Of a DNA stretch of 64,000 nucleotides, positions 24,192-25,625 are shown in pieces. The first letter of the stretch is position 1, and each line of letters starts with the position of its first letter. The notes below the pieces were generated by a model, which was not told the DNA's origin, did no database searches, and was given only the letters and a program-made list of their open reading frames with translations. Origin of the DNA: Fibrobacter sp. UWB13. Its GTDB lineage: Bacteria; Fibrobacterota; Fibrobacteria; Fibrobacterales; Fibrobacteraceae. The translations under genes were made by a program, and so were the position numbers. The stretch lies in contig NZ_FXAX01000001.1 in assembly GCF_900177805.1 (NCBI RefSeq), positions 1,736,001 to 1,800,000 on the forward strand, in the 5' to 3' direction.

Positions 24192-25625
24192 ATGAATATA
24201 CTCGTCGTAACTCCAGAAGCGGGGAACTGGAAGGTACCGAGCCCCCTCGCAACCGCGGTCAACTGCATGACGCAGGCATTTGCCAACGCCGGTTCTCAGG
24301 TTATTACTTGTTCGCCATTCTATAAAGACCATATTATCGATCCCGACAAGTATCATTGCGTTTATCAAGGCGTCGAAGCGTTGCAGAACAAGCCGTTCGA
24401 AGTCTGGCGTTCTGAAGACGACCCCCTCCACACTTATATATATAATGAGGAATATTTCGGCAGGCCCTATGTTTACGGACCACCGCACGCCCTCCCCTAC
24501 AGCGACAACCACCTGAGATTCGCCATGTTCGCCTCGGCAGTGCTCTCCTACAGCGCGCAAAGCGGCATCCAGTTCCAGGCAATCCTCGGTCATGAATGGG
24601 GTGGTGCCCTCGTCGGTGCACTCTGCCACACCGTCTACCAAGAAGCATTCCACAACATCCCGTTTTTCTTCAACGTCCATAACATCACTTACGACTTCCA
24701 CGTGCAGCCGAGCGAAATCGAAAAAATCGGTCTCCCGCGCAAGGATTTCAACATGGACGGCTACGAGTTCTGGGGCAAGGTCAGCCTCCTCAAGGCAGGC
24801 ATCCTGTACGCCAACAAGGTCCTGTTCCCATCGTCAGGCTATCGCGACGCCATGCTTAACACGAACCTCCCCGGCGGTCTCAGCGGATTCTTGAACCGCA
24901 ACAGCAGCAAGCTCCTCGGCATCCAGTTCGGCGTGAACTACAAGTTCTGGGACTTCAACGACGAAGCCAAGCGTCCCATCAAAGAAGCGAAGCGTATCGC
25001 CAAGGCGAGCCTCGGCCGCCAGTTCGACATGGATCTTTCGAACAAGCTCATCATTTACAGCCACATGGACATGGAGTCGGGCAACGCTTCCGAAACGCTT
25101 GCGACCATCCTTTCGGACATCGCCAAAGAGAACGTCCTTATCATCGTGGGCATTTCGCCAGAACACCCCGAATGGAACTACTACCAGGAAGTTTCTCACC
25201 AGTACGGCAACTTCATCCGCATCCTCCAGTTCGATTCCGAAGAAGCGAACAACAGAGAAAAATTACGCAACACGCTTGCCGCCTCGGACCTTCTATTTGC
25301 GGCAAACCTGCAAGAGCCGTCCGCCTCGATAATCCTCAAGGCCATGGCTGCAGGTACGCTCCCGCTCACGGGCCGCAACGTCGGCATCGCAAGCATGCTC
25401 ACCGACTACACCCTCGAGACCGCAGGCGAAGCCAACGCATTCCTCGTCGATGACGCAAACGCTCCGCACCAGATGCTTCGTCGCATCAAGGACGCCATCA
25501 GTGTGTACAACACGGAAGTCGCCGATTGGGACAAATGCGTCGTAAATGCTTACAGCGGATTCCACTACGAGTGGGCAAAGACAATTTCAAAATATTTACT
25601 AACTTTGGGTGAACTGGGGCTTTAG
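24192..25625 (+). CDS. Atypical glycogen/starch synthase-like GT5 glycosyltransferase
   Basis: The 477-residue protein has the layout of GlgA: MNILVVTPEAGNW, the HEWGGAL block (HDWQT equivalent), NVHNITYDF (VHNIAYQG), SLLKAGILYANKVLFPS, and the C-terminal EPSASIILKAMAAGTLPL block. However, the nucleotide-sugar-binding KxGGL motif near the N-terminus is replaced by VPSPLATAV. The C-terminal E-x7-E loop is also changed (EPSA instead of EPCG). It may therefore use another donor or be inactive. The last three codons lie inside the following tRNA gene (25616-25625). Confidence 0.72.
   Translation: MNILVVTPEAGNWKVPSPLATAVNCMTQAFANAGSQVITCSPFYKDHIIDPDKYHCVYQGVEALQNKPFEVWRSEDDPLHTYIYNEEYFGRPYVYGPPHALPYSDNHLRFAMFASAVLSYSAQSGIQFQAILGHEWGGALVGALCHTVYQEAFHNIPFFFNVHNITYDFHVQPSEIEKIGLPRKDFNMDGYEFWGKVSLLKAGILYANKVLFPSSGYRDAMLNTNLPGGLSGFLNRNSSKLLGIQFGVNYKFWDFNDEAKRPIKEAKRIAKASLGRQFDMDLSNKLIIYSHMDMESGNASETLATILSDIAKENVLIIVGISPEHPEWNYYQEVSHQYGNFIRILQFDSEEANNREKLRNTLAASDLLFAANLQEPSASIILKAMAAGTLPLTGRNVGIASMLTDYTLETAGEANAFLVDDANAPHQMLRRIKDAISVYNTEVADWDKCVVNAYSGFHYEWAKTISKYLLTLGELGL

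What the first reader, a model, noticed from the sequence alone, without database searches (positions are those of the whole stretch)
25616..25625. Coding sequence ends inside a tRNA gene
The GT5-like gene's final codons and TAG stop (GGG CTT TAG) are bases 1-10 of the tRNA(CAU). If both are on one transcript, RNase P cleavage at 25615/25616 would remove the stop codon and leave a non-stop mRNA. So expression of the tRNA and of the enzyme could conflict or be linked, or the tRNA has its own promoter inside the coding region.
Basis: seen in the sequence. Interest (0 to 1): 0.6.

Follow-up and report, generated by a model that had tools for sequence, protein, structure and literature searches.

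The report
Enzyme gene ending inside a tRNA
In Fibrobacter gut bacteria the last ten bases of a sugar-transferase gene, its stop codon included, double as the start of a tRNA gene whose promoter appears to be written into the enzyme's last codons; comparison of about 60 relatives shows that this dual use is old and maintained, not a sequencing or annotation accident.

Summary
The overlap is real. The GT5-like gene (24192-25625) ends with TAG at 25623-25625, which is nt 8-10 (U8-A9-G10) of a tRNA(CAU) at 25616-25690; overlap 10 nt. It is not an isolated stop loss: 38 of 61 distinct Fibrobacter loci share it, always with CTT-TAG. In two deeper relatives the tRNA already abuts (gap 0) or overlaps by 1 nt. 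Other lineages have lost the overlap. The tRNA, most likely tRNA-Ile2(CAU), very probably has its own promoter inside the GT5 codons: a TAnnTTTG element 8 nt before the tRNA, like other tRNA promoters of this genome, forced by rare Leu codons (CTA 36/39 against 3% background, 0/23 in non-overlapping relatives). Synonymous diversity is lowest of the whole gene there, only in overlapping species. A terminator follows the tRNA and none was found before it, so long GT5 transcripts must carry the tRNA; RNase P cleavage would leave them without a stop. That conflict is plausible but untested. A published precedent, selC overlapping selB, proposes the same idea. In passing: this tRNA is the target of an integrase element that splits it and carries an intron-bearing replacement.

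The parts
24192..25625 (+). GT5 (starch/glycogen-synthase-like) coding sequence, 477 aa, stop TAG
   Evidence: ORF; PF08323 129 bits; TIGR02095 166.8 bits, below its cut-off of 328
25616..25690 (+). tRNA(CAU), most likely tRNA-Ile2 (AUA decoder)
   Evidence: ARAGORN, RF00005; 58 identities with E. coli ileX against 53 with metT; TilS present
25616..25625 (+). 10-nt overlap: third base of CTG, GGG, CTT, TAG = tRNA acceptor 5' strand and U8-A9-G10
   Evidence: sequence; same in 38 of 61 Fibrobacter loci
25578..25583 (+). weak -35-like element AAGACA of the tRNA promoter
   Evidence: matrix from 50 other tRNA upstream regions of the genome: 1.3 bits
25600..25607 (+). -10/-7 element TAACTTTG (TAnnTTTG), 8 nt before the tRNA, inside codons CTA ACT TTG
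   Evidence: 8.1 bits; Leu codon bias and synonymous constraint in overlapping species only
25691..25726 (+). intrinsic terminator directly after the tRNA (stem AATAGCGTTA..TAACGCTATT, T run)
   Evidence: 14 pairs; hairpins with other sequences at the same place in relatives

Best explanation
A stably inherited dual-use locus. The last codons of the GT5 gene also hold the promoter of a tRNA-Ile2(CAU) gene, and the tRNA's first ten bases also supply the last two codons and the stop codon of GT5. The tRNA is made mainly from the embedded promoter and ends at the terminator behind it, so tRNA supply does not depend on GT5 expression. GT5 mRNA reads through the tRNA to the same terminator. On those long transcripts the tRNA fold, cut by RNase P, and translation termination at U8-A9-G10 exclude each other, so some GT5 mRNAs should become non-stop and be handled by tmRNA. 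Shown by sequence: the overlap, its conservation, codon constraint matching a promoter, the terminator, presence of tmRNA. Inferred: promoter activity, RNase P cutting of the long transcript, non-stop fate. The overlap probably arose when an older stop next to or touching the tRNA was lost and the frame ran to the tRNA's UAG.
For: Overlap in 38 of 61 distinct Fibrobacter loci, spread over all main clades of the GT5 tree, with non-overlapping forms clustered; stop always TAG in the overlapping set, TAA or TAG in the other Fibrobacter loci. Deeper relatives: L128 gap 0, L133 overlap 1 nt, both with the same TTTACTAACTTT before the tRNA. Promoter matrix from 50 other tRNA upstreams scores the site 9.5 bits; 0 of 5000 synonymous recodings of the same peptide reach it, and 1.1% of random window places do. 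Leu codons at the element: CTA 36/39, TTA 29/39 in overlapping species against 3.4% and 1.9% in the rest of the gene; CTA 0/23 and TTA 1/23 in non-overlapping species. Lowest synonymous diversity of the whole gene is at its last 12-13 codons in the overlapping set, not in the other set. Where the tRNA has moved 43-44 nt downstream, the spacer holds TATATTTG before it. Terminator after, none found between; tmRNA.
Against: No RNA or protein data. The -35 is weak (AAGACA; CGCACA or AGGACC in other clades) and many overlapping relatives score only about -1 to 5 bits with the matrix. Loss of the overlap in several lineages shows that it is not required. Some of the sequence conservation reflects common descent. 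The ancestral state is inferred by parsimony with two distant outgroup loci.
Confidence: 0.75

Rival explanations
1. Regulatory coupling: RNase P processing of the GT5-tRNA transcript is a selected control that limits GT5 output (non-stop mRNA, tmRNA tagging) according to tRNA or RNase P state.
For: Long persistence of the overlap; no terminator found between gene and tRNA; tmRNA present; the same idea was proposed for selB-selC (PMC8124441).
Against: No expression data; repeated loss of the overlap in the genus; GT5 has no evident link to AUA decoding; the embedded promoter alone explains why the two genes stay joined.
Confidence: 0.2
2. Neutral stop loss: the old stop was lost by chance, the frame ran to the tRNA's UAG, and nothing selects for or against the overlap beyond the tRNA and its promoter. 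This is compatible with the best explanation and only denies the overlap itself a function.
For: 33 of 51 tRNAs carry TAG at about nt 8-10; L133 has TAG GGA CTT TAG, so loss of its first stop would give an overlapping form; the tail is dispensable in outgroups (GEH, GEN, GECC, GES ends).
Against: Long persistence needs at least tolerance of the RNase P conflict.
Confidence: 0.5
3. The tRNA has no promoter of its own and is released only from the GT5 transcript by RNase P.
For: Same strand, no gap, shared terminator.
Against: Codon bias and synonymous constraint matching the genome's tRNA promoter element at the right distance; moved tRNAs carry the same element in their new upstream DNA.
Confidence: 0.1
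4. Annotation or assembly artefact, or a decayed GT5 gene.
For: None found.
Against: Same junction in dozens of separate assemblies, including several rated 100% complete; protein conserved to its end.
Confidence: 0.01

Closest known systems
selC (tRNA-Sec) nested in or partly overlapping selB (Mukai 2021, PMC8124441)
   Same: Bacterial protein gene whose end lies inside a same-strand tRNA gene (stop codon inside the tRNA in the Dyella/Luteibacter forms); shared by many species, with remnants, spacers and insertions in relatives; RNase P processing proposed to give a non-stop mRNA.
   Different: There the tRNA is the functional partner of the encoded protein; here the enzyme has no evident link to the tRNA, which is probably an essential AUA decoder. 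Here the overlap is 10 nt and the stop is U8-A9-G10 (there nt 46-48). A promoter inside the coding region is supported here.
Animal mitochondrial protein genes overlapping tRNAs (mentioned in PMC8124441)
   Same: Coding sequence shares bases with a tRNA that is cut out of the transcript.
   Different: Compact organelle genome (and, from general knowledge, polyadenylation can complete stops there); not a bacterial chromosome.
sigma-A promoters with a TAnnTTTG -7 box in flavobacteria (PMC9723704)
   Same: Same -7 consensus as found here before Fibrobacter tRNAs.
   Different: Fibrobacter tRNA promoters here also show TTGACA 16-17 nt upstream, and the GT5 one lies in a coding sequence.

Membership tests
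Protein gene overlapping a downstream same-strand tRNA (selB-selC kind) | Stop codon inside the tRNA gene | tested here: met
   TAG at tRNA nt 8-10
Protein gene overlapping a downstream same-strand tRNA (selB-selC kind) | Overlap conserved among species | tested here: met
   38 of 61 loci
Protein gene overlapping a downstream same-strand tRNA (selB-selC kind) | Non-stop mRNA formed by tRNA processing (proposed, not defining) | not testable with these tools
   needs 3'-end mapping
tRNA-Ile2 (CAU, lysidine) | CAU anticodon and closer to Ile2 than to Met tRNAs | tested here: inconclusive
   58 against 53 identities with E. coli ileX and metT (score 40 against 23). The other two CAU tRNAs are one that looks like the initiator (L081) and L045, which itself scores slightly higher against ileX than metT (27 against 21). 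Likely Ile2, not proved
tRNA-Ile2 (CAU, lysidine) | TilS in the genome | tested here: met
   TIGR02432 over cut-off at C1:909810-910478
Glycogen synthase GlgA (TIGR02095) | Score above the curated cut-off | tested here: not met
   166.8 against 328.45; PF08323 is met, so called GT5-like only
Fibrobacter tRNA promoter as derived here | TTGACA-16/17-TAnnTTTG ending about 8-14 nt before the tRNA | tested here: inconclusive
   -10 half met (8.1 bits), -35 half weak (1.3 bits)

The most novel reading that the evidence does not exclude
Each GT5-tRNA transcript makes either GT5 with a proper stop or a tRNA: RNase P turns GT5 mRNA into a non-stop message, so tmRNA rescue and tRNA maturation set the level of a polysaccharide-synthesis enzyme, a conserved link between AUA decoding and glycogen-type metabolism.
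Probability: 0.15. Interest if true: 0.7.

Novelty: new variant of a known kind. Interest (0 to 1): 0.45.

Why it matters
It is a natural test of what happens when translation termination and tRNA processing need the same ten bases. It also shows a coding sequence whose synonymous codons look held by a promoter for another gene, with natural controls (relatives that lost the overlap also lack the codon bias). The one bacterial report of the kind found in the literature searched is selB-selC, so an unrelated gene pair with a probably essential tRNA suggests that such overlaps are more general.

Tried and rejected
The standard sigma-70 scan found no promoter in 24000-26000; the genome's own tRNA motif was needed. 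A first, unanchored motif comparison between classes picked neighbouring AT-rich octamers (AATATTTA/G) and was replaced by the codon-anchored one. The idea that the overlap arose by deletion between GGGACTTTA repeats in spacer-type species was dropped, because the tree and the outgroups make adjacency older and spacers derived. The GGGACTTTAG gene end kept in some species without the same-strand tRNA there (L015, L016, L030, L102) may be a remnant of the tRNA, but a conserved G-L-stop tail explains it as well. Thermodynamic folding gives acceptor and T arms but not a clean cloverleaf. Paper searches for CDS-tRNA overlaps in bacteria gave only the selB-selC report.

Full report
What is there. 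The window lies in a Fibrobacter genome (relatives named; the window is G000:C1:1736001-1800000). A GT5-like gene, 24192-25625, ends ..GGT GAA CTG GGG CTT TAG. The tRNA(CAU) starts at 25616. The stop codon is tRNA nt 8-10, the conserved U8-A9-G10. Among 51 tRNAs of this genome no other has a long open frame ending in its first bases.

Conservation. tblastn of GT5 in 60 related genomes and in GTDB contigs gave 68 distinct loci. In the tree of 61 Fibrobacter GT5 proteins plus 5 outgroups, 38 Fibrobacter loci have the same 10-nt overlap, 8 have the tRNA 41-44 nt downstream, 3 have a tRNA of this type facing the gene, and 12 were scored as having no same-strand tRNA there; some of those 12 (L019, L023, L026) also have one facing the gene, whole or intron-bearing. 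Overlapping loci occur in every main clade, and the label needs 4 changes against 18.7 in shuffles. In the outgroup L128 the GT5 stop TGA directly abuts the tRNA; in L133 the stop TAG shares one base with it and a second in-frame TAG follows at nt 8-10. The simplest history is adjacency first, then one stop loss near the base of the genus, then several later separations. This polarity is inferred.

Promoter inside the codons. Upstream regions of 50 other tRNAs of the genome gave a motif TTGACA-16/17-TATATTTG, whose -10 half matches the TAnnTTTG box known in flavobacteria (PMC9723704). The GT5 end contains AAGACA-16-TAACTTTG, 8 nt before the tRNA: 9.5 bits, of which 1.3 from the -35. None of 5000 synonymous recodings scores as high; 1.1% of random places do. 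In overlapping species the two Leu codons are TTA/TTG and CTA/CTT (CTA 36 of 39), although CTA makes up 3.4% and TTA 1.9% of Leu codons in the rest of the gene; in 23 non-overlapping loci they are mostly CTG and CTC/CTG, with no CTA. Amino-acid-normalised synonymous diversity has its minimum over the whole gene at the last 12-13 codons in the overlapping set only. Species whose tRNA has moved away carry TATATTTG or TATCTTTG before the tRNA in its new place (by eye for L029). I take the internal promoter as well supported and its strength as unknown.

Consequence for GT5. No terminator was found between gene and tRNA; a strong one starts at 25691, and hairpins with other sequences stand there in relatives. 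So a full GT5 transcript carries the tRNA. If RNase P cuts it, the message ends ..GAA CU without a stop. tmRNA is encoded. The same consequence was proposed by Mukai for selC inside selB. It follows from established tRNA processing but has not been shown here. The C-terminal tail is probably not critical: outgroups end at GE plus one or two residues.

Identity of the tRNA. It shares 58 positions with E. coli tRNA-Ile2 (ileX) and 53 with elongator Met (metT). TilS is present. It is the only tRNA of its type found in several genomes rated 100% complete, for example G026, G029, G033. Ile2 is likely, not proved.

Mobile element at the same tRNA. In 11 loci (L005, L012, L013, L018, L022, L084, L090, L093, L098, L100, L126) the tRNA is cut after ..CGGACT by the same sequence, which leads into a tyrosine integrase gene (PF00589, 69.6 bits). 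In G003 the other tRNA half lies 51.5 kb away, in G030 15.5 kb; the shared core is AGAGCAGCGGACT. The element carries a second tRNA of the same type, interrupted in the anticodon loop by about 240 nt with group I intron motifs (RF00028 19.8 bits, full length, below its cut-off of 50). In G003 and G030 this intron-bearing copy is the only complete tRNA of the type found. The GT5 stop survives insertion because the cut is downstream of nt 10; in L111 the tRNA's 5' part is deleted and the GT5 frame runs on into the element. G000 has the intact GT5-tRNA plus an intron-bearing copy elsewhere (C1:1972195), in DNA 98-99.9% identical to the element-side DNA of G014, G003 and G030.

Verdict. Real, conserved, and best read as an old dual-use junction with an embedded tRNA promoter. 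The kind is known (selB-selC); the gene pair, the stop position and the codon-level promoter signature are, as far as the searched literature shows, new.

Noticed in passing
L018/L172-L174 (G003:C2:136114-187664), L175 (G030:C1:205655-221197), L177, L005, L012, L022: An integrase-bearing element inserts into this tRNA gene and splits it (core AGAGCAGCGGACT) without restoring it, but carries an intron-bearing tRNA of the same type; in G003 and G030 that is the only complete copy found. A mobile element that breaks a probably essential tRNA and brings a self-splicing substitute would merit its own study.
   Followed up: partly
L171:17175-17486 (G000:C1:1972174-1972485), L023, L026, L028: tRNA(CAU) copies with a ~240-nt group I-like intron in the anticodon loop; Rfam RF00028 matches the full model but scores 18-20 bits, below the cut-off of 50. 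Exact splice sites are unclear (one extra A in the loop if the intron ends in G).
   Followed up: partly
L111 (GT5 3' end): At an element-occupied locus the tRNA 5' part is missing and the GT5 frame runs about 70 codons into the element (GELRTINPAPK..).
   Followed up: no
G000 tRNA upstream regions (L031-L082): Fibrobacter tRNA promoters combine TTGACA with a Bacteroidota-like TAnnTTTG box.
   Followed up: partly
L045 (G000:C2:614334-614405): The third CAU tRNA, presumably elongator Met, aligns about equally well to E. coli Ile2 and Met, so the Met/Ile2 assignment of the two genes rests on likelihood.
   Followed up: no
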